Below are positions 170 through 7,055 of a DNA stretch of 8,083 bases, piece by piece. The stretch covers positions 1 to 8,083 of the forward strand of contig JAAENB010001001.1 in assembly GCA_024224995.1 (NCBI GenBank). Reading direction: 5' to 3'. Below the pieces are notes generated by a model. That model ran no database searches and was not told the DNA's origin. It worked only from the letters and a program-made list of their open reading frames with translations. The stretch is from a bacterium (GTDB taxonomy: Bacteria; Spirochaetota; UBA4802; UBA5550). Position 1 is the stretch's first letter. Each line of letters starts with the position of its first letter. A program made the translations under genes and the position numbers.

Positions 170-236
170 CAGAGCCTGTTCTACCGGAAGATGTTATCCG
201 GGGTTCTGCTCTGTTGCCCCTTGGGGTTAAAACCCC
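170..236. repeat. Nested hairpin followed by GGGGTTAAAACCCC palindrome
   Basis: CAGAGC (170-175) pairs with GCTCTG (209-214) and encloses CCGGA (184-188) pairing with TCCGG (197-201). Immediately after is GGGGTT-AA-AACCCC (223-236). The same GGGGTTAAAACCCC core recurs at 6844-6857, and a relative, GGGGTTTCAACCCC, at 6987-7000. The core is therefore dispersed in both gene-free flanks of this locus. Confidence 0.55.
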
Positions 237-398
237 GGGCTGAGATTGGCTCATTTTCAAAAATTCTTGCGCACCCCTTGTCGGAATCTCCATAACCCTG
301 GCATTAATGGCCTCGGTTAACTGGTGAGCCCTGTACCCGGCTCTTTTGAGGCGGAGACTCTTTATTATATTTATATCTGGTCATAGTAAAGTCTCCGG

Positions 399-1217
399 TT
401 ACGGCGCGACAGAATAATCACTGTCAACAGAATTCGACCTGCCTCCGCTAATGGCGGAAGACAAGCCGTTCGCGGAATTTTCCATTCCCCCGCTAACACT
501 GGAGCTCTGTCCCCGGGCAGTATTATAAACACCGCCGCTAACACTGGAATGTAAATTTACCGCGGAGTTCCTGCTGCCGCCGCTCACGCTGGAGTGCATG
601 CCGCTTGCGGTATTATTCATGCCGCCGGAAACGCCGGAACTATAACCGTCCGCGGTATTATAACTGCCTCCGCTTACGCTGGAAAAATTCCCGCCGGAAT
701 TGTTATAACTCCCGCCGCTTACGCAGGAAAACCAACCGCTGATAGTATTATAATACCCGGCAGCAATACCGCCGTATGATAAAAAATTATTATACTGGCC
801 AACCACCATATTATGCGAGCCTGTCCGGTCGTTTCCATAAGTACGGGACTCATTATAGCCAATAACCAGGTTGCCCAGGCCGTTCACCTCTCCGTCCGTA
901 GATCCGGTGCCGTTTAAGATTTGAACATTAACGCCGCTAAAAACAATAGTATCCCCGGTTCTGGAAACTCCTGAAAAGACTTCGCTTAAATCGGAGGTTT
1001 CCCCGGTAGCTGGCTCACTGCCTCCTTCGGGAATGTTCGAAACAGCCTCTTTTAACGTTTCAATTTCATTCCGCATGGAATCCATTTGAGTGTAGATATC
1101 GGAAAAGCTGAAATTTTCTCCTGAGTCATTACTGCTGAGACCTTCTTCGCACCCGGAAAATAACAGGACAGGTATAATTATAATTCCGGCAAGCTGTTTT
1201 AATATTGTTGTTTTCAT
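399..1217 (-). CDS. Lipoprotein with YadA/Hep_Hag-type head repeats
   Basis: This 272-residue protein is predicted to be exported and lipid-anchored. A hydrophobic N-terminus (residues 8-22) ends in the lipobox FSGC with Cys23. A short stretch at about 38-62 has heptad-like spacing and could be a trimeric coiled coil. From residue 113 come the motifs NLVIGYN and NMVVGQYN typical of trimeric autotransporter heads, then seven tandem 15-residue VSGG repeats (166-270). The ATG is preceded by AAAGGAG nine bases upstream. The protein stops abruptly with 'YSVAP', where another VSGG unit would be expected. It has no YadA barrel and no peptidase-S74-like tail, so it may be C-terminally truncated. It is the third gene of the leftward block, 103 bases after the second STAS gene, and could share its control. 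It is probably a trimeric surface protein or adhesin; its ligand is unknown. Confidence 0.85.
   Translation of the reverse strand: MKTTILKQLAGIIIIPVLLFSGCEEGLSSNDSGENFSFSDIYTQMDSMRNEIETLKEAVSNIPEGGSEPATGETSDLSEVFSGVSRTGDTIVFSGVNVQILNGTGSTDGEVNGLGNLVIGYNESRTYGNDRTGSHNMVVGQYNNFLSYGGIAAGYYNTISGWFSCVSGGSYNNSGGNFSSVSGGSYNTADGYSSGVSGGMNNTASGMHSSVSGGSRNSAVNLHSSVSGGVYNTARGQSSSVSGGMENSANGLSSAISGGRSNSVDSDYSVAP
402..722 (-). repeat. 45-nt tandem coding repeats (VSGG units)
   Basis: Seven degenerate 45-nt units encode the 15-residue pattern [VI]SGG-x2-N-[ST]-x-x(6). The unit length is a multiple of three, so unit gain or loss by recombination would keep the frame. The last unit is 14 residues and is followed by VAP and a stop. 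Confidence 0.85.
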
Positions 1218-1668: not shown

Positions 1669-2004
1669 TTATACTCCTGAATATGTTTCTTCAAATTTCT
1701 GTTTGCTTACGGGCTTAAAAATACGATCCCAATTATTCCTCGAAAAAAGCTCATCCATAACCGCGCTTAAGCCGTAAACAATGAGCTCAATGTCATTCTC
1801 TTTGCTATACCGGGCCACCCGTATGAGCCCGCCCAGGCCTATTGAATCAATAAAGGTCATGCCCTCACAGTTGACCCCTATTACCTTGAGCTCTTCACCG
1901 GAATAGTCCGCCAGGATCGTCTCCATTTCCCCGCCTGTTCTATAATCACAATTTTTCCCGGTATGTAATATAATTACCCGGTCGCTGTATTGTTCTGTTT
2001 TCAC
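1669..2004 (-). CDS. STAS-domain anti-sigma-factor antagonist-like protein
   Basis: With the start chosen here, the protein has 111 residues and is a bare STAS domain. It has an N-terminal beta strand (RVIILHTG), the central strand VIGVNCEGMTFI, and then D53-S54-I-G-L. Ser54 occupies the position phosphorylated in RsbV/SpoIIAA-type antagonists. I start at GTG 2004-2002 because AAAGGAG (2013-2019) lies eight bases upstream and the domain begins there. A TTG at 2088 would add 28 residues, but it has no ribosome binding site and sits at the edge of a terminator U-run. A following STAS paralogue lies nine bases downstream. No anti-sigma kinase (HATPase) is visible in the window, so its partner must be elsewhere. 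It is first in the leftward operon, opposite the ECF sigma gene, behind a predicted ECF-type promoter and a structured leader. Confidence 0.8.
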   Translation of the reverse strand: MKTEQYSDRVIILHTGKNCDYRTGGEMETILADYSGEELKVIGVNCEGMTFIDSIGLGGLIRVARYSKENDIELIVYGLSAVMDELFSRNNWDRIFKPVSKQKFEETYSGV

Positions 2005-2086: not shown

Positions 2087-2174
2087 AAAAAAATAGAGGC
2101 CGGACCGTGAAACCGGGCGAAACGACAATCTCCCGAGGAAAGTCAGTAACCGGAATGGAAAGTCCGGCCCCCAT
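2087..2174 (-). terminator. Intrinsic-terminator-like stem and U-run before STAS gene
   Basis: On the minus strand a 13-bp stem (2174-2162 with 2105-2093; core GGCCGGAC/GTCCGGCC) leads directly into seven T (2093-2087), the first of which pairs with the stem. The apical part is long (56 nt) compared with a standard terminator but has its own nested pairs. It lies about 80 bases before the GTG of the first STAS gene. Read-through must therefore occur for that operon to be expressed from the upstream promoter, or a second promoter must lie within 2005-2086. Confidence 0.5.
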
Positions 2175-2200
2175 CGAACTACAAAACCCGTCAAGGTTCT
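2087..2200 (-). ncRNA. Putative leader RNA or small RNA ahead of STAS genes
   Basis: Starting about seven bases after the leftward -10 box (2208-2213), the transcript would run roughly 110 nt to a run of seven U. Most of it folds into one rod. A closing stem (2093-2105 with 2162-2174) surrounds CCGG (2150-2153) with CCGG (2113-2116), then GAC/GUC (2142-2144 with 2124-2126), then UCC/GGA with a UCG loop. The outer five pairs of the closing stem include two G-U wobbles that exist only in minus-strand RNA; the plus strand would have C-A mismatches there. That points to the minus strand as the functional one. It could be a stand-alone sRNA, an attenuator, or an undescribed riboswitch-like leader. 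I do not recognise any known family. Confidence 0.5.
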
Positions 2201-2205
2201 ATTTG

Positions 2206-2235
2206 TGTAGACGAATTAAACAGGCGATTGTCCTG
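2206..2235 (-). promoter_or_regulatory. Predicted ECF-type promoter for the leftward transcript
   Basis: Read on the minus strand: CAGGACAAT (2235-2227), 13 bases, then CGTCTACA (2213-2206). CGTCTA is a typical ECF-type -10, and the GGACA box at -35 distance fits the GGAAC-like class. The same two boxes with the same 13-base gap appear in mirror image on the plus strand at 2302-2331. The spacers differ. Conserved boxes with free spacers are the signature of a promoter. Predicted start is near 2200. Confidence 0.6.
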
Positions 2236-2301
2236 AAAAAAAACGGATAAGTTATTTTTTTTGAAATTATGATTTTTTTTTTGGATCTGTTGTTTTTTTT
2301 T

Positions 2302-2331
2302 CAGGACAATTTCGCTTTTTTTTCGTCTACA
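2302..2331 (+). promoter_or_regulatory. Predicted autoregulatory ECF-type promoter of the sigma operon
   Basis: CAGGACAAT (2302-2310), 13 bases, then CGTCTACA (2324-2331). Predicted transcription start is near 2336-2338, giving a leader of about 34 bases to the ATG at 2371. The spacer includes T8 (2316-2323), so slippage would change the -35/-10 distance. ECF sigma factors commonly drive their own operon, which fits the placement. A T9 run sits directly upstream of the -35 box. Confidence 0.6.
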
Positions 2332-2370: not shown

Positions 2371-2919
2371 ATGACCGAAGTCCCGAAGAAAGTAAACAGG
2401 CTCAATGATATATTTAAAGATACCTATAGAGAAGAGTCCGCTGCCATAAACGGGGTAATTTATACCAAAACCGGCGACAGGGAAACAGCGGAAGACCTTA
2501 CACAGGAGGTGTTTATTGAATTTTTTCTGAATATGGAAACCATTGAGAAAACGAGAGCATGGCTGTATACAACCATGCGGAACAAACTTTTTGATTATTA
2601 TCGAAAAAAGAAAAACATGCCCGAAAACCTGGCCAGGCTTGAAGCTTCCGGTGATATTGCACTGACGTATATTAACGGGTTTAAGGATACACGGATTATA
2701 ATTCAAGAAGCTATGGAGAGTATCGCGGAAATTATGGATAACAGGGATGTTACTATTTTCGAACTAATCGCCGTTCAAAACTATTCTTACCGGGAAACGG
2801 CAAAGACCCTGGGTACCAGTAAAGGGAATGTGGAATACCGGTATAGTAAAGTTGTAAGTAACATCCTGGATTTCCTGAGGGGTAAAAAAGGAATAAAGAC
2901 GCTGGAGGAATTATTATAA
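2371..2919 (+). CDS. ECF-family RNA polymerase sigma factor
   Basis: This 182-residue cytosolic sigma-70-family protein of ECF size has only regions 2 and 4. Region 2 spans about residues 15-82. It contains the helix GDRETAEDLTQEVFIEFF (the D-x-x-Q-E-V-F core motif at 42-48) and the -10-reading segment WLYTTMRNKLFDYYRKKK (64-81). Region 4 spans about 115-170, with the helix-turn-helix YSYRETAKTLGTSKGNVEYR (138-157) that should read the -35 element. The next gene begins at 2919, overlapping the TAA by one base (TAATG), so sigma and presumed anti-sigma are translationally coupled. The upstream motif pair has ECF-type boxes and suggests autoregulation. The region 4 sequence is divergent, so no ECF subgroup is assigned. 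It is the likely regulator of the genes on both sides. Confidence 0.9.
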   Translation: MTEVPKKVNRLNDIFKDTYREESAAINGVIYTKTGDRETAEDLTQEVFIEFFLNMETIEKTRAWLYTTMRNKLFDYYRKKKNMPENLARLEASGDIALTYINGFKDTRIIIQEAMESIAEIMDNRDVTIFELIAVQNYSYRETAKTLGTSKGNVEYRYSKVVSNILDFLRGKKGIKTLEELL

Positions 2920-3614
2920 TGGCTGAATTAGATCAAAATATCACAACTATCAGGAAAGTTCTGGAAAAGTGCGGACTTGCTTACCCGGTCCCGGAGTCTT
3001 ATAAAGAGTATATTCGGAAAAACAGGCGCAGGTTCTATATTAAACTTATAAAACGGACCGGGCATTATACGCTCTGGGAGGGGCTTACCTCTTATATATA
3101 TTTCGGCTGTACCAGGTTTGGTCTTCAGCTTACGTCGCTTCAAAGCAGTGTTGCCTTTATCGCGGCTTCCGCTATGGCTGTCGCCGTAATTTCCACTGGC
3201 GGTTATTTCGCGGTTAAAATTTTTGTTTTTGATCCCGTTGAAATAAAACCTGTTCAGGTAGAAAAAACGGTTAACGCCGCTCCTGTTAAAGAGACAGTAA
3301 AAGCCAAACCCCGGCCCAAACCTTTTACCCTGAACCTGTTAATTGAAGGGTTTGGAAATATCGATAAAAAAACCACGACCAGTATTAGTCAAAAAGTTAA
3401 GCGCTACTTTATTAAAAACGGCATTAGCATAAATAAAAAGTATATTGTTTCCGGAGAGATTAAGGCCATTGAAGGAAATTATTACGCTAAGATCCGGGCC
3501 TTTAATAATAAAGCCGAGCAGGTTCATTTTAAACGGGAAACTATAAAGAGTCTTAACGATTTAGAGGACTTCTTTATTAAAGAATCTAAAAAAATTGCTC
3601 ATAAAATTAAATAA
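2919..3614 (+). CDS. Single-pass membrane protein, probable anti-sigma factor
   Basis: The protein has 231 residues. The N-terminal 75 are charged, arginine/lysine-rich around 31-46, and presumably cytosolic. One membrane segment lies at about 77-98 (SVAFIAASAMAVAVISTGGY), followed by a Pro/Lys/Val-rich linker (105-136) and a C-terminal domain (137-231) with alternating strand and helix pattern, expected to be periplasmic. The start overlaps the sigma stop codon by one base, and GGAGG lies upstream inside the sigma gene. Position, coupling and topology are those of FecR/RseA-like anti-sigma factors. There is no HxxxCxxC zinc motif and I do not recognise the N-terminal domain, so the function is inferred from context. 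The C-terminal part (about 176-230) resembles a segment of the next gene product, including S-x(7,8)-EGxY and a K-E-x-x-K end, which suggests a shared fold. Confidence 0.7.
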   Translation: MAELDQNITTIRKVLEKCGLAYPVPESYKEYIRKNRRRFYIKLIKRTGHYTLWEGLTSYIYFGCTRFGLQLTSLQSSVAFIAASAMAVAVISTGGYFAVKIFVFDPVEIKPVQVEKTVNAAPVKETVKAKPRPKPFTLNLLIEGFGNIDKKTTTSISQKVKRYFIKNGISINKKYIVSGEIKAIEGNYYAKIRAFNNKAEQVHFKRETIKSLNDLEDFFIKESKKIAHKIK

Positions 3615-3617
3615 GGA
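3612..3617 (+). promoter_or_regulatory. Ribosome binding site supporting a TTG start
   Basis: TAAGGA overlaps the stop codon of the membrane protein and is followed by seven bases and TTG at 3625. No ATG precedes the signal peptide. The next one, at 3649, would cut off the basic n-region. Confidence 0.65.
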
Positions 3618-3624
3618 AACCCCG

Positions 3625-4608
3625 TTGAGAACAAACAAATATATTTATATGGTCCTGTTTATTTTCCTGTTCGCGGCCTTTTTCCCGGCAGGCGCGCGGG
3701 CAGAGAAAATAACGGTTAAAAATGTCTATGTTTATGACGCTACGCCTAAAGGGCTTAAACTGGATACGGAAAAGATGATTATTAAAGACCTGCTTGAAGA
3801 GTCTATTAGCCTTAACAAGAAACTAAAGCAGCTTGTTATAGATGACTTTAAAGCAATGGCAAAAAAAATGAAAGTTCAGGAGTCCGATGAAGCCGGTGCG
3901 CTTGATATTGCCGAAAACGCCTTTAGTGATCTCTTCCTGTCCATGTCTCTTAATAAAACTCCCGAAGGGGAATACAGGCTTACGCTCAGGTTAAAAGACG
4001 TTAAAAAAAGACTTACCCTGTATACAAAAACTATTGAGTTCGATTCTGTAACCGAAGCCGAGCCCGACATTAAGGAAATGAGCAAGGTTATGTTTGAAAA
4101 AAGAAAACTGGAAAGCAGCCTTTTCCTGGATTTGAAACTTTGCTATTTGCAGCCCCTGGGCAATTATGCCGATATCTCTAACCCCGGGTTTGGTTTCGCC
4201 TTCAGGTTCGGCATTAGCAACCTGGTTTTTAACTATTGTTCCCTGGCCCTGGAAACAGGGTATTATCGTTTTACGTATAATAGTAATTCTAATGATACCA
4301 TTAATCATATCCCGGTTTTTGTATGCGCCGCGTACGAATTCCGGTTTTTAGATAAATTTTCCATTAGCCCGGTCTTTGGCTGCGGGATTGATTTTATTAT
4401 TACCAGTCATGACGCCGGAAAAGGATTCAGTTTAAAAGATAATTCCGGCGCCGCCAGTACGGAACAGCTGATTAAAACAGGTCTCGAATTTAAGATGATT
4501 ATTTCAGAGTCTACCAGTGTTTTAATCAGCACGTCGTATAACTTTATTTTCGAAGAAAAACGGCTCGATTTTTTTAATATAAATTCGGGCGCACAAATTA
4601 GATTATAG
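3625..4608 (+). CDS. Outer-membrane beta-barrel protein with periplasmic N-domain
   Basis: This 327-residue protein uses the TTG start. A signal peptide (RTNK, then a hydrophobic run, cleavage after A-R-A near residue 26) sends it to the periplasm. Residues 27-160 form a soluble alpha/beta region. Residues about 164-327 show alternating hydrophobic/polar strands (LFLDLKLCYL, FGFAFRFGI, LALETGYYRF, FSISPVFGCGIDF, SVLISTSYNFIF) ending in GAQIRL. This is consistent with a small barrel of about eight strands, although the terminal residue is Leu rather than the usual aromatic. The N-domain segment around residues 104-161 resembles the C-terminal domain of the preceding membrane protein. An outer-membrane barrel with a periplasmic domain, next to an anti-sigma-like protein, suggests a signal-relay role like FecA. 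No plug or TonB box is seen. A structural role, such as an OmpA-like anchor, is an alternative. Confidence 0.7.
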   Translation: MRTNKYIYMVLFIFLFAAFFPAGARAEKITVKNVYVYDATPKGLKLDTEKMIIKDLLEESISLNKKLKQLVIDDFKAMAKKMKVQESDEAGALDIAENAFSDLFLSMSLNKTPEGEYRLTLRLKDVKKRLTLYTKTIEFDSVTEAEPDIKEMSKVMFEKRKLESSLFLDLKLCYLQPLGNYADISNPGFGFAFRFGISNLVFNYCSLALETGYYRFTYNSNSNDTINHIPVFVCAAYEFRFLDKFSISPVFGCGIDFIITSHDAGKGFSLKDNSGAASTEQLIKTGLEFKMIISESTSVLISTSYNFIFEEKRLDFFNINSGAQIRL

Positions 4609-4621
4609 TGAGGTTATTTCC

Positions 4622-6430
4622 ATGAAAATTTTTTATTTATTTCTTTTGTCTATTGTCTTATTCGCGATTATATTTTGCGGCTGCAATCTCGACGGCAATG
4701 CCATTAGCCGGTCTACCGATGACGATACCATTCCCCCTGCCGTTACTATTACTTCGCCAACAAGCGGTAATACCTATGGTTCCGGTTCTATTGTTATCCA
4801 GGGAAAAGCTTCCGATGATATAAAAATTCTAAAGGTCGAAACCTGTATCGATGACGGGCCCTGTACCGAAGCCAACAGCAGAGGTTTCTCTTCCAGTTCC
4901 GACAACCTGGAATGGATTTCCTTTGTTGAGACAAGTACCTTGAGTGACGGGCCCCATACTATTACTGCCAGGGCCATAGATTTATGGGATAATGTTACTA
5001 CTGCCAGCATCAGTATCAATGTCGACAACGGTACTCCCCTGGCTGTTATTTCAGGAGTTCCTCCTGTCATTAGCGATACTACGGATTTAAATGTTTCTGT
5101 TTCAGGGGCCGGGATTGTTGCTTATAAGTATAAGCTTGATACCGGTGAATGGTCTCCGGAGACTTCTGTTGCGGTTCCTATTACCGCGTCAGGGCTTGGG
5201 GTAGGGGAGCATACGCTTTTGATAATTGGGAAGAAGGTTGTTAATTCGAAAGATGTATGGCAGGATGCTACTACGGAGGTTACGAAGTTTGTGTGGTCTG
5301 TGAATAAAAAGTATTATTTTACTGCTACTGATTCGGAAGCTGATGATTATTATGGACAAAGTGTAGCGGTATCCTCTGATGGGTGTACTATTGTTGTTGG
5401 TGCTCCAGGTGACGATGATAATGGGAGTAATTCCGGCACTGTATATGTATACAGCTGGACAGGTAGTACCTGGAATCAAACTGAACTCACACCCTCTAAT
5501 GCTGGTGCAGGGAGAAATTTTGGAAAGTGTGTAGCAGTATCCTCAGATGGCAGCACTGTTGTTGTCGGTGCTGTAGGCTGGATTAATAATGGGAATTCCG
5601 GCTATGTGTATGTGTTCAGCCGGACAGGTAGTTCCTGGCATGAAACTAAACTCATATTCAATGAAACTGCTTTTGGAGGGGATCATTTTGGATACAGTCT
5701 AGCCGTTTCCTCAAATGGGAGTACTATTGTTATCGGTGCTTCTCGGGATGAGGGAGAAACCGGCTGTGCATATGTGTACAGCCGGACAGGTAGTACCTGG
5801 AATCAAACTAAACTCAAAGCCAACGATGCTGATAGTGGTGATTATTTTGGGTATAGTGTAGCAGTATCCTCTGACGGTAGTACTGTTGTTGTCGGTGCTT
5901 ATTTGGATATGTTTGGCAGTGCATATGTGTACTGCCGAACAGGTAGCGCATGGAACCAAACAGCTAAACTCATAGCCGCCGATGGCGCTGGTGGTGATTA
6001 TCTTGGAAGGACTGTAGCAGTATCCTCTGATGGTAGTACTATTGTTCTCAGCGCTTATGGTGACGATGATAATGGGGGTGATTCCGGCAGTGTATATGTG
6101 TATAACTGGACAGGTATCGCCTGGGATCAAACTAAACTTATAGCTGTCGATGGTGCTTATGGGGATCATTTTGGATGGAGTGTAGCGGTTTCCTCTGATG
6201 GCAGTACTGTTGTTGTCGGTGCTATTAATGATGATGATAATGGGGAATCATCCGGCAGTGCATATGTGTATAACTGGACAGGTAGTTCCTGGGATCAAAC
6301 CAAATTCATAGCCAACGATGGTGCTGCTGGTGATTGTTTTGGGTATAGTGTAGCAGTTTCTTCTGATGGTAGCACTGTAATAGTAGGGGCTTGGGGTGGT
6401 CAAGGCTCGGTACACCTCTTCTACCCATAA
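4622..6430 (+). CDS. Lipoprotein with Ig-like domain and seven-bladed beta-propeller
   Basis: The protein has 602 residues. The signal peptide ends in FCGC with Cys21 as the likely lipidated residue. Residues 36-135 match a bacterial Ig-like domain (PPAVTITSPTSGNTY ... SDGPHTITARAIDLWDN). Residues 138-226 form a second beta-rich domain. Residues 229-602 hold seven FG-GAP-like units built on FGxSVAVSSDGSTVVVGA. Units 1, 5 and 6 have DDDNG loops that could bind calcium. The seventh unit ends after VHLFYP, and the segment KKYYFTATDSEADDY before unit 1 resembles the missing strand of each unit (WDQTKFIANDGAAGD). The propeller therefore appears to close by N- and C-terminal exchange and is complete. 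It is the last gene of the sigma operon, 13 bases after the barrel gene, with GAGG upstream. Likely a surface or periplasmic binding module; ligand unknown. Confidence 0.85.
   Translation: MKIFYLFLLSIVLFAIIFCGCNLDGNAISRSTDDDTIPPAVTITSPTSGNTYGSGSIVIQGKASDDIKILKVETCIDDGPCTEANSRGFSSSSDNLEWISFVETSTLSDGPHTITARAIDLWDNVTTASISINVDNGTPLAVISGVPPVISDTTDLNVSVSGAGIVAYKYKLDTGEWSPETSVAVPITASGLGVGEHTLLIIGKKVVNSKDVWQDATTEVTKFVWSVNKKYYFTATDSEADDYYGQSVAVSSDGCTIVVGAPGDDDNGSNSGTVYVYSWTGSTWNQTELTPSNAGAGRNFGKCVAVSSDGSTVVVGAVGWINNGNSGYVYVFSRTGSSWHETKLIFNETAFGGDHFGYSLAVSSNGSTIVIGASRDEGETGCAYVYSRTGSTWNQTKLKANDADSGDYFGYSVAVSSDGSTVVVGAYLDMFGSAYVYCRTGSAWNQTAKLIAADGAGGDYLGRTVAVSSDGSTIVLSAYGDDDNGGDSGSVYVYNWTGIAWDQTKLIAVDGAYGDHFGWSVAVSSDGSTVVVGAINDDDNGESSGSAYVYNWTGSSWDQTKFIANDGAAGDCFGYSVAVSSDGSTVIVGAWGGQGSVHLFYP
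5306..6430 (+). repeat. Tandem coding repeats of about 52-56 codons
   Basis: The marker G-T-A/C-T-A of 'VAVSS' (or 'LAVSS') occurs at 5363, 5531, 5699, 5858, 6014, 6182 and 6350, so the spacings are 168, 168, 159, 156, 168 and 168 bases. All are multiples of three. Units are well conserved at nucleotide level (for example GCAGTATCCTCTGATGG), which implies recent duplication or gene conversion. Confidence 0.9.
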
Positions 6431-6840: not shown

Positions 6841-6860
6841 CCTGGGGTTAAAACCCCAGG
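6841..6860. repeat. CCTGGGGTTAAAACCCCAGG palindrome
   Basis: A nine-base perfect stem (CCTGGGGTT with AACCCCAGG) around AA. The core GGGGTTAAAACCCC is identical to 223-236 on the other side of the locus. It has the features of a dispersed REP-type element. Confidence 0.65.
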
Positions 6861-6957
6861 CTACATGACTAAACCCCTCCGGGGTATTTCTGGTATGGGA
6901 CCGAATCGCCCGCAGGGCATTGGTTGACCATTGGTTGATGCTGACCCAGGACAGAAA

Positions 6958-6972
6958 CGCCCCAGCGGGGCG
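6958..6972. repeat. CGCCCC-AGC-GGGGCG hairpin
   Basis: A perfect six-base stem with a three-base loop, fourteen bases from the GGGGTTTCAACCCC palindrome. The two may form one composite element. Confidence 0.55.
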
Positions 6973-6985
6973 ACGTATTGTAGCT

Positions 6986-7001
6986 CGGGGTTTCAACCCC
7001 G
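6986..7001. repeat. CGGGGTT-TC-AACCCCG palindrome
   Basis: A perfect seven-base stem. It is a variant of the GGGGTTAAAACCCC core found at 223-236 and 6844-6857, making this the third copy of the motif in the window. Confidence 0.6.
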
Positions 7002-7055
7002 TGAAACAGAGCATGGCCCCGGTTAAAATCCCCGGAAACAGGCCCTACTTTTTAC

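What the first reader, a model, noticed from the sequence alone, without database searches (positions are those of the whole stretch)
2206..2331. Mirror-image ECF-type promoters with identical boxes and spacing
Outward from the centre both strands read CAGGACAAT, then exactly 13 bases, then CGTCTACA, while the spacers differ (CGCCTGTTTAATT against TTCGCTTTTTTTT). CGTCTA is a classic ECF -10. This predicts that the sigma factor encoded at 2371 transcribes both its own operon and the divergent STAS operon, and it gives a testable motif for the whole regulon.
Basis: partly seen in the sequence, partly recalled or inferred. Interest (0 to 1): 0.8.

Follow-up and report, generated by a model that had tools for sequence, protein, structure and literature searches.

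The report
Paired outward promoters beside sigma gene
Between two divergent bacterial operons lie two matching start signals, pointing outwards, that the neighbouring sigma factor gene probably uses to switch on both itself and its neighbours; some related genes show the same layout with different letters, so the arrangement looks real but is of a known kind.

Summary
In detail: CAGGACAAT-N13-CGTCTACA lies at 2206-2235 (-) and 2302-2331 (+), without mismatch; 0.01 matches were expected, and 0 of 1500 shuffles match the mirrored pair. Box and spacing fit ECF promoters, and the gene at 2371 is an ECF sigma factor. The window's genome is not held, so its regulon could not be scanned.

Relatives support the reading. 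Four of 60 fetched sigma loci carry mirrored pairs with other boxes (TTGTCC-N16-TCNAC), the second promoter facing a FecR-domain lipoprotein gene. Upstream boxes follow sigma kinship (0 of 2000 permutations). STAS, sigma and membrane-protein homologues have equal contig lengths in one relative (19376).

A rod-like hairpin followed by U7 stands between the minus promoter and the STAS start (GTG 2004), the strongest such site in a scan of the window. The leftward promoter may therefore give an attenuated leader or a ~110-nt RNA.

Autoregulated, divergent ECF promoters are known. The STAS partner, the leader and the subclade-specific boxes are the new parts.

The parts
2302..2331 (+). Rightward ECF-type promoter: CAGGACAAT (-35), N13, CGTCTACA (-10); preceded by T9 at 2293-2301; start point inferred near 2336-2338
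   Evidence: exact match; shuffles; geometry like listed sigma-E promoters. Start point inferred
2206..2235 (-). Leftward mirror copy of the same promoter; preceded on its strand by T8 (A-run 2236-2243); start point inferred near 2199-2201
   Evidence: exact match; arms 2198-2243 / 2294-2339
2371..2919 (+). ECF sigma factor (182 aa), proposed to use both promoters
   Evidence: Sigma70_r2 45 bits (cut-off 24), Sigma70_r4_2 28.8 (cut-off 25.7)
2919..3614 (+). Membrane protein with one predicted TM stretch (read by eye); N-terminal part conserved in 54 of 55 second genes (window included); candidate sigma regulator (anti-sigma function inferred)
   Evidence: alignment A3; only residues about 134-231 modelled with confidence
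3595..4608 (+). Third operon gene, apparently exported; falls in one BLAST cluster with second and third genes of relatives (start codon uncertain)
   Evidence: cluster c0; no Pfam match for the window protein; L140's third gene matches LpoB and OMP_b-brl only below cut-off
4622..6430 (+). FG-GAP_2 repeat protein, lipoprotein-like by eye, possible end of the sigma operon
2092..2175 (-). Rod-like hairpin in the leader of the leftward transcript; 15-bp outer stem; segment folds at -37.6 kcal/mol
2087..2093 (-). U7 tract directly at the end of the hairpin: terminator-like for leftward transcripts only
1669..2004 (-). STAS protein 1 (111 aa, GTG start at 2004; not the TTG at 2088 of the ORF list)
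   Evidence: STAS 31.2 bits (cut-off 22.6) on the longer ORF; start placed by homologues P0030 and P0031 of 111 aa
1321..1659 (-). STAS-like protein 2 (112 aa), degenerate
   Evidence: STAS 14.2 bits, below cut-off 22.6
399..1217 (-). Lipoprotein-like protein with 15-aa repeats, possible end of the STAS operon
   Evidence: translation; 45-nt DNA repeats; no Pfam match

Best explanation
The two sites are divergent promoters read by RNA polymerase carrying the ECF sigma factor encoded at 2371. The rightward one makes a positive feedback loop for sigma, its membrane regulator and two further proteins. The leftward one switches on, in the same condition, a transcript leading towards two STAS proteins and a repeat lipoprotein. 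That leftward transcript must pass a terminator-like hairpin before the first STAS codon, so its output is probably attenuated or split into a short RNA and a read-through mRNA. Shown: the boxes, the shared spacing, the recurrence of the layout in four relatives, the following of sigma kinship by the boxes, and the predicted hairpin. Inferred: that this sigma reads the boxes, the start points, the anti-sigma role of the membrane protein, and any attenuation.
For: Exact mirrored boxes (0 of 1500 shuffles). CGTCTA -10 at 16 bp from CAGGAC, against 17 bp from GGGAAC in listed sigma-E targets. Sigma domains above Pfam cut-offs. Of 59 upstream regions scanned without naming a motif (window and 58 of 60 relatives), the best mirror is the window (z 6.8, 0 of 200 shuffles); the next mirrors are L190 (1/200), L184 (1/200) and L189 (2/200). 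These and L182 hold TTGTCC-N16-TCNAC on both strands, 4 of 4, and all four divergent genes encode FecR-domain proteins. The stricter form TTGTCC-N16-TCNACTTA hits 8 places in 45 genomes: 6 are three of the divergent pairs, 1 lies before an fn3-domain gene beside the sigma operon in G217, 1 before its 45%-identical relative at a second FecR-lipoprotein locus in G072. Two-box likeness between nearest sigma relatives is 9.60 against 8.68 for all pairs, 0 of 2000 permutations. A sigma-70 consensus scan lists no minus-strand site between 2004 and 2206.
Against: No expression data. Own genome not held, so no regulon test with the window's own boxes. 54 of the 59 regions show no convincing mirror pair. 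L182 was not picked by the restricted scan (another pair, 26/200). In an earlier unrestricted scan with 40 shuffles the window and L190 had 0 of 40, but so had L168 and L179 with unrelated-looking pairs; L189, L182 and L184 had 2, 3 and 5 of 40. The TTGTCC motif was read by eye from the same loci, and its genome-wide count (8) is below the backwards control (19); only its placement is informative. Terminator-like hairpin before STAS.
Confidence: 0.78

Rival explanations
1. The leftward promoter mainly makes a short sigma-dependent RNA of about 110 nt (about 2200 to 2087) ending at the hairpin and U7; the STAS genes are driven by another promoter or by a minority of read-through.
For: Hairpin folding at -37.6 kcal/mol followed by U7, the strongest such site in a scan of both strands; the minus strand folds better than shuffles (z -3.1, 0 of 200), the plus strand does not (z -0.9, 32 of 200). 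Sigma-E type factors driving small RNAs are known (recalled).
Against: No Rfam match at E up to 1 in this region; in 45 relatives only a 22-base match; the standard terminator scan did not list it, its loop being longer than that scan allows; no sigma-70-like minus-strand site between 2004 and 2206 to drive STAS otherwise. In relatives the mirror promoter leads into a protein gene: after 65 and 71 nt in L190 and L189 and about 67 nt in L182 (by eye), after 220 nt with hairpins but no U run of 6 in L184.
Confidence: 0.3
2. The inverted boxes are operators of a dimeric repressor or activator rather than ECF promoters.
For: A long inverted repeat (arms 46 nt) could bind a symmetric protein.
Against: Arms lie 50 nt apart and the boxes are not palindromic by eye; boxes and spacing fit ECF promoters; apart from sigma no DNA-binding domain is among the Pfam matches of the 8 proteins scanned, 3 of which had no match; comparable sites in relatives sit just before sigma start codons.
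Confidence: 0.07
3. The arms are terminal inverted repeats of a small mobile element, or a chance inverted repeat.
For: 46-nt arms; the window holds other repeated palindromes near its ends.
Against: Boxes agree 17 of 17 while spacers agree 6 of 13; no other copy in the window; 0 of 1500 shuffles. Copies in the own genome could not be looked for.
Confidence: 0.05

Closest known systems
ECF41 sigma loci (Bacillus licheniformis, Rhodobacter sphaeroides; PMC3426412, passages)
   Same: In divergent loci both the ECF gene and its neighbour are often preceded by the same promoter motif
   Different: ECF41 carries a fused C-terminal domain and neighbours COE genes; here a short sigma factor, a membrane protein and STAS genes
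Sinorhizobium meliloti RpoE7 (ECF16; PMC6180224, passages)
   Different: Targets are conserved hypothetical proteins; mirrored boxes are not described in the passages seen
Leptospira interrogans LIC_12757 / FecR-like LIC_12756 (PMC12155086 and review PMC12655853, passages)
   Same: Spirochaete ECF sigma, autoregulated, with an adjacent FecR-like membrane regulator; promoter with a CGT motif in the -10
   Different: Window regulator has no FecR match; no divergent target in the passages seen
Streptomyces coelicolor sigma-E promoters (PMC6767563, passages)
   Same: Sites of the type GGGAAC-N17-CGTCTA
   Different: -35 here is CAGGAC with N16; unrelated lineage
EcfG / NepR / PhyR partner switch (PMC4814048, listing and start of abstract)
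   Same: An ECF sigma factor under an anti-sigma factor and its antagonist
   Different: The antagonist there is PhyR; here STAS proteins, whose role is not shown

Membership tests
ECF sigma factor | Sigma-70 region 2 and region 4 only, about 180 aa | tested here: met
   both domains above Pfam cut-offs, 182 aa; TIGR02937 64.8 bits over cut-off 42.9
ECF sigma factor | Gene followed by a cognate anti-sigma factor | tested here: inconclusive
   Overlapping membrane-protein gene whose N-terminal part is conserved in 54 of 55 second genes, but no known anti-sigma domain matched
Autoregulated ECF locus | Sigma-dependent promoter upstream of its own gene | tested here: inconclusive
   Promoter-like site present and boxes follow sigma kinship; no transcription data
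FecI/FecR surface signalling | FecR domain in the membrane regulator | tested here: not met
   No Pfam match in window 2919-3614 at E up to 0.1; the relative in L190 does have one, 47.3 bits
FecI/FecR surface signalling | TonB-dependent receptor with signalling extension | tested here: not met
   None among the Pfam matches of the 8 window proteins; the rest of the genome is not held
SpoIIAA/RsbV anti-sigma antagonist | STAS domain | tested here: met
   STAS 31.2 bits; one search matches SpoIIAA, E 0.0014
SpoIIAA/RsbV anti-sigma antagonist | Phosphorylated serine (second S of DSSG; that this is the site is recalled) | tested here: not met
   FIDSIGLG in the window against FMDSSGLG in SpoIIAA: Ile at that place; P0030-P0032 also Ile, P0033 Thr. 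TM1442 itself has Ala there
Intrinsic terminator / attenuator | Stable stem followed directly by a U run | tested here: met
   -37.6 kcal/mol then U7; the loop is far longer than the 3-8 allowed by the scan; termination itself not testable here
Known RNA family (Rfam) | Match to a covariance model | tested here: not met
   none in 2000-2340 at E up to 1

The most novel reading that the evidence does not exclude
The leftward promoter fires, together with sigma, a structured RNA of about 110 nt that works as a small RNA or as a signal-responsive attenuator. It gates two STAS proteins, at least the first without the usual phosphorylation serine, that feed back on an ECF sigma factor: a STAS partner grafted onto an ECF module whose promoter boxes diverge from paralogue to paralogue.
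Probability: 0.25. Interest if true: 0.65.

Novelty: new member of a known kind. Interest (0 to 1): 0.42.

Why it matters
It gives an uncharacterised sigma family a concrete promoter pair. It also gives a comparative rule: boxes differ between paralogues, resemble each other among the nearest sigma relatives and, in five of the 59 upstream regions scanned, are mirrored on both strands. That rule lets one predict a paralogue's own promoter and its few targets, and test how ECF paralogues in one cell stay insulated from one another. It also points to STAS proteins as possible partners of an ECF system.

Tried and rejected
Own-genome regulon search: no genome is held. A looser form of the window's motif (AGGACA-N14-16-CGTCTA) in relatives: 15 hits in 12 of 45 genomes, none at a sigma locus, and more hits for the pattern read backwards; rejected as a motif shared with that order. 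Exact pattern in viral contigs: 0. First genome-contig scan with the single protein: no relative. Second scan with the alignment: one close relative (L001, 39% identity); the other 79 loci kept are distant ECFs; no window-type motif in L001 or its genome. Viral relatives (23 loci) are distant and were not used. FecR reading of the window's membrane protein: not met. A tandem second promoter: 1 of 59 tandem tests reached 2 of 200 or fewer (L142); not pursued. The Foldseek match of the C-terminal domain to ribosome hibernation factors is taken as a shared small alpha/beta fold (LpoB and TolB also appear), not as function. The hairpin element in 45 relatives: only a 22-base match.

Rows dropped: of 63 places at E 1e-22 or better, 60 were fetched. 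Of the window and these 60, L183 (no start codon found by the script) and L176 (contig begins 95 nt upstream) were left out, leaving 59. In one search, 55 loci had a gene in the position asked for. Start codons in the relatives were chosen by a script and some may be wrong.

Full report
What is there. CAGGACAAT-N13-CGTCTACA lies at 2206-2235 on the minus strand and 2302-2331 on the plus strand; nothing else in the window comes within 3 mismatches, and 0.01 matches were expected. A scan that names no letters, but asks only for two equal 8-mers with equal spacing pointing outwards, gives 13.6, where 1500 shuffles reach at most 12.0 (2173-2370) or 12.8 (2005-2370). The repeat finder gives arms of 46 nt (2198-2243, 2294-2339), so the likeness takes in the T run before each -35 and the letters up to the presumed start point. 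Spacers agree at 6 of 13 places, boxes at 17 of 17.

Gene setting. Rightwards: an ECF sigma factor (2371-2919), an overlapping membrane protein (2919-3614), a third protein, and an FG-GAP_2 repeat protein. Leftwards: a STAS protein, a weaker STAS-like protein, and a lipoprotein-like protein with 15-aa repeats. The ORF list starts STAS 1 at a TTG at 2088; homologues of 111 aa starting MKTEQ and MKTEL (P0030, P0031) place the start at the GTG at 2004. This leaves a leader of about 195 nt from the presumed start point near 2200.

The leader. Between the minus promoter and GTG 2004 stands a rod-like hairpin (2175-2092; the segment folds at -37.6 kcal/mol) followed at once by U7 (2093-2087). A scan of both strands for a U-rich octamer after a strong fold found this as the strongest; the only other hit was -25.6 kcal/mol near base 95 on the plus strand. 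The standard terminator scan does not list it, because it allows loops of 3-8 only. The minus strand folds better than shuffles (z -3.1, 0 of 200), the plus strand does not (z -0.9). Rfam has no match there. So the leftward transcript is probably attenuated, or partly released as an RNA of about 110 nt. A sigma-70 consensus scan lists no minus-strand site between 2004 and 2206, which speaks for the mirror promoter as the source of STAS mRNA.

Family. The protein search gave 23 hits, of which 9 besides the window's own protein are strong (E 1.3e-29 or better). The window's genome is not held, and its taxon is not known. An alignment-based scan led to a MAG titled Spirochaetes bacterium (L001). 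A search of 392 genomes of its phylum, drawn from a larger group, found matches at 1e-15 in 53. Those at 1e-22 or better (63 places in 27 genomes, up to 5 matches in a genome) all lie in one order with 46 genomes held. I fetched 60 of the 63. In 54 of 55 loci with a second gene in place (window included), that gene keeps a conserved N-terminal part and membrane stretch. The C-terminal part varies: FecR in L190, a small alpha/beta domain in the window (model confident only for residues 134-231).

Comparative test of the promoters. By eye, upstream regions of many of the sigma genes show a T run, a -35-like box, about 14-16 nt, and a -10-like box shortly before the start codon, with letters that differ by subclade. 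For 59 regions, two-box likeness between nearest sigma relatives (identity under 80%; 59 picks, reciprocal ones counted twice) averages 9.60 against 8.68 for all pairs; the largest of 2000 permutations is 9.07, and the 30 picks under 60% identity average 9.24. Shared ancestry can add to this. Mirrored pairs: with the forward site held near the sigma start, the window ranks first (z 6.8, 0 of 200), followed among mirrors by L190 (1/200), L184 (1/200) and L189 (2/200). Five of 118 tests reached 2 of 200 or fewer, where 1.8 are expected; 4 of the 5 are these mirrors, the fifth a tandem pair in L142. L182 was not picked (26/200) but carries the same motif. An earlier unrestricted scan with 40 shuffles put the window and L190 on top, but L168 and L179 also had 0 of 40. 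TTGTCC-N16-TCNAC is on both strands in 4 of 4 of these loci and on no minus strand in 56 other regions; the motif was read from these same loci, so that count is descriptive.

Targets in the relatives. The divergent gene in those four loci encodes a FecR-domain protein, 51.3 to 54.1 bits over a cut-off of 24, in one BLAST cluster with the sigma-linked membrane proteins. Its leader is 65-71 nt in L190 and L189, about 67 nt in L182 by eye, and 220 nt in L184, with no U run of 6. The stricter motif TTGTCC-N16-TCNACTTA occurs 8 times in 45 genomes: 6 are the pairs of G072, G159 and G199; one stands before an fn3-domain gene next to the sigma operon of G217; one stands before a 45%-identical gene elsewhere in G072, beside a second FecR-domain gene and one more, imperfect, back-to-back pair. 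Whether these fn3 genes encode outer-membrane proteins is open: OMP_b-brl matches one, below cut-off. The pattern read backwards gives 19 scattered hits, so number alone says nothing; placement does. The plus member of that last pair leads into what looks by eye like a truncated remnant of a sigma N-terminus.

Link to STAS. Equal length is strong but indirect evidence of one contig. The other two STAS homologues lie on short contigs (1257, 1595). STAS 1 has Ile where SpoIIAA has the second serine of DSSG (that this serine is the phosphorylated one is recalled); TM1442 has Ala there.

Known ground. [quoted passage not shown] RpoE7 of Sinorhizobium, acting on itself and four divergent genes (PMC6180224); autoregulated LIC_12757 with FecR-like LIC_12756 (PMC12155086; PMC12655853); CGTCTA in listed sigma-E targets (PMC6767563). 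A partner switch on an ECF sigma factor is known in EcfG/NepR/PhyR (PMC4814048, start of abstract only). A search for ECF sigma with STAS domain, divergently, promoter and anti-sigma factor antagonist (4 of 5 terms) listed 4 papers, none by title on an ECF sigma factor with a divergent STAS operon; that covers this open-licence library only. So the layout is a known kind. New here are the family, its subclade-specific boxes, the STAS partner and the hairpin leader.

Verdict. Observation confirmed; interpretation partly supported; confidence 0.78 that both sites are promoters of the adjacent sigma factor. That the STAS genes are its main leftward product is less sure.

Noticed in passing
window 2087-2175 (-): Rod-like hairpin with U7 in the STAS leader, the strongest terminator-like site in a scan of the window; candidate attenuator or small RNA.
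   Followed up: partly
window 2236-2323: A or T runs of 8, 8, 10, 9 and 8 bases at 2236-2243, 2255-2262, 2273-2282, 2293-2301 and 2316-2323; the first four are evenly about 19 bases apart, between the two -35 boxes.
   Followed up: no
window 222-241, 6841-6886, 6958-7003: Short palindromic repeats; the last two score below threshold against the Rfam family Acido-Lenti-1 (26.2 and 28.5 bits, cut-off 37).
   Followed up: no
window 399-1217 and 4622-6430: Both operons may end in repeat-bearing, lipoprotein-like proteins (15-aa repeats; FG-GAP_2 repeats), hinting at an envelope or surface regulon.
   Followed up: no
L201 1143-1206: Back-to-back imperfect promoter pair sharing GGACAAATTTTTTGTCC beside a second FecR-domain gene; the plus side leads into an apparent truncated sigma remnant (by eye).
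   Followed up: partly
L157, L165, L166, L168, L171 upstream of sigma: A GTAGACA element (L165, L168, L171) or GTGGACA/CTGGACA (L166, L157) about 120-140 bases upstream of sigma in one paralogue group; in four of the five loci a thioredoxin-like gene (WCGPC, by eye) lies divergently.
   Followed up: no
window 2919-3614 and second genes of relatives: Conserved N-terminal part with no Pfam match reaching its cut-off in the five proteins scanned, followed by differing C-terminal parts: possibly an undescribed sigma-binding domain.
   Followed up: partly
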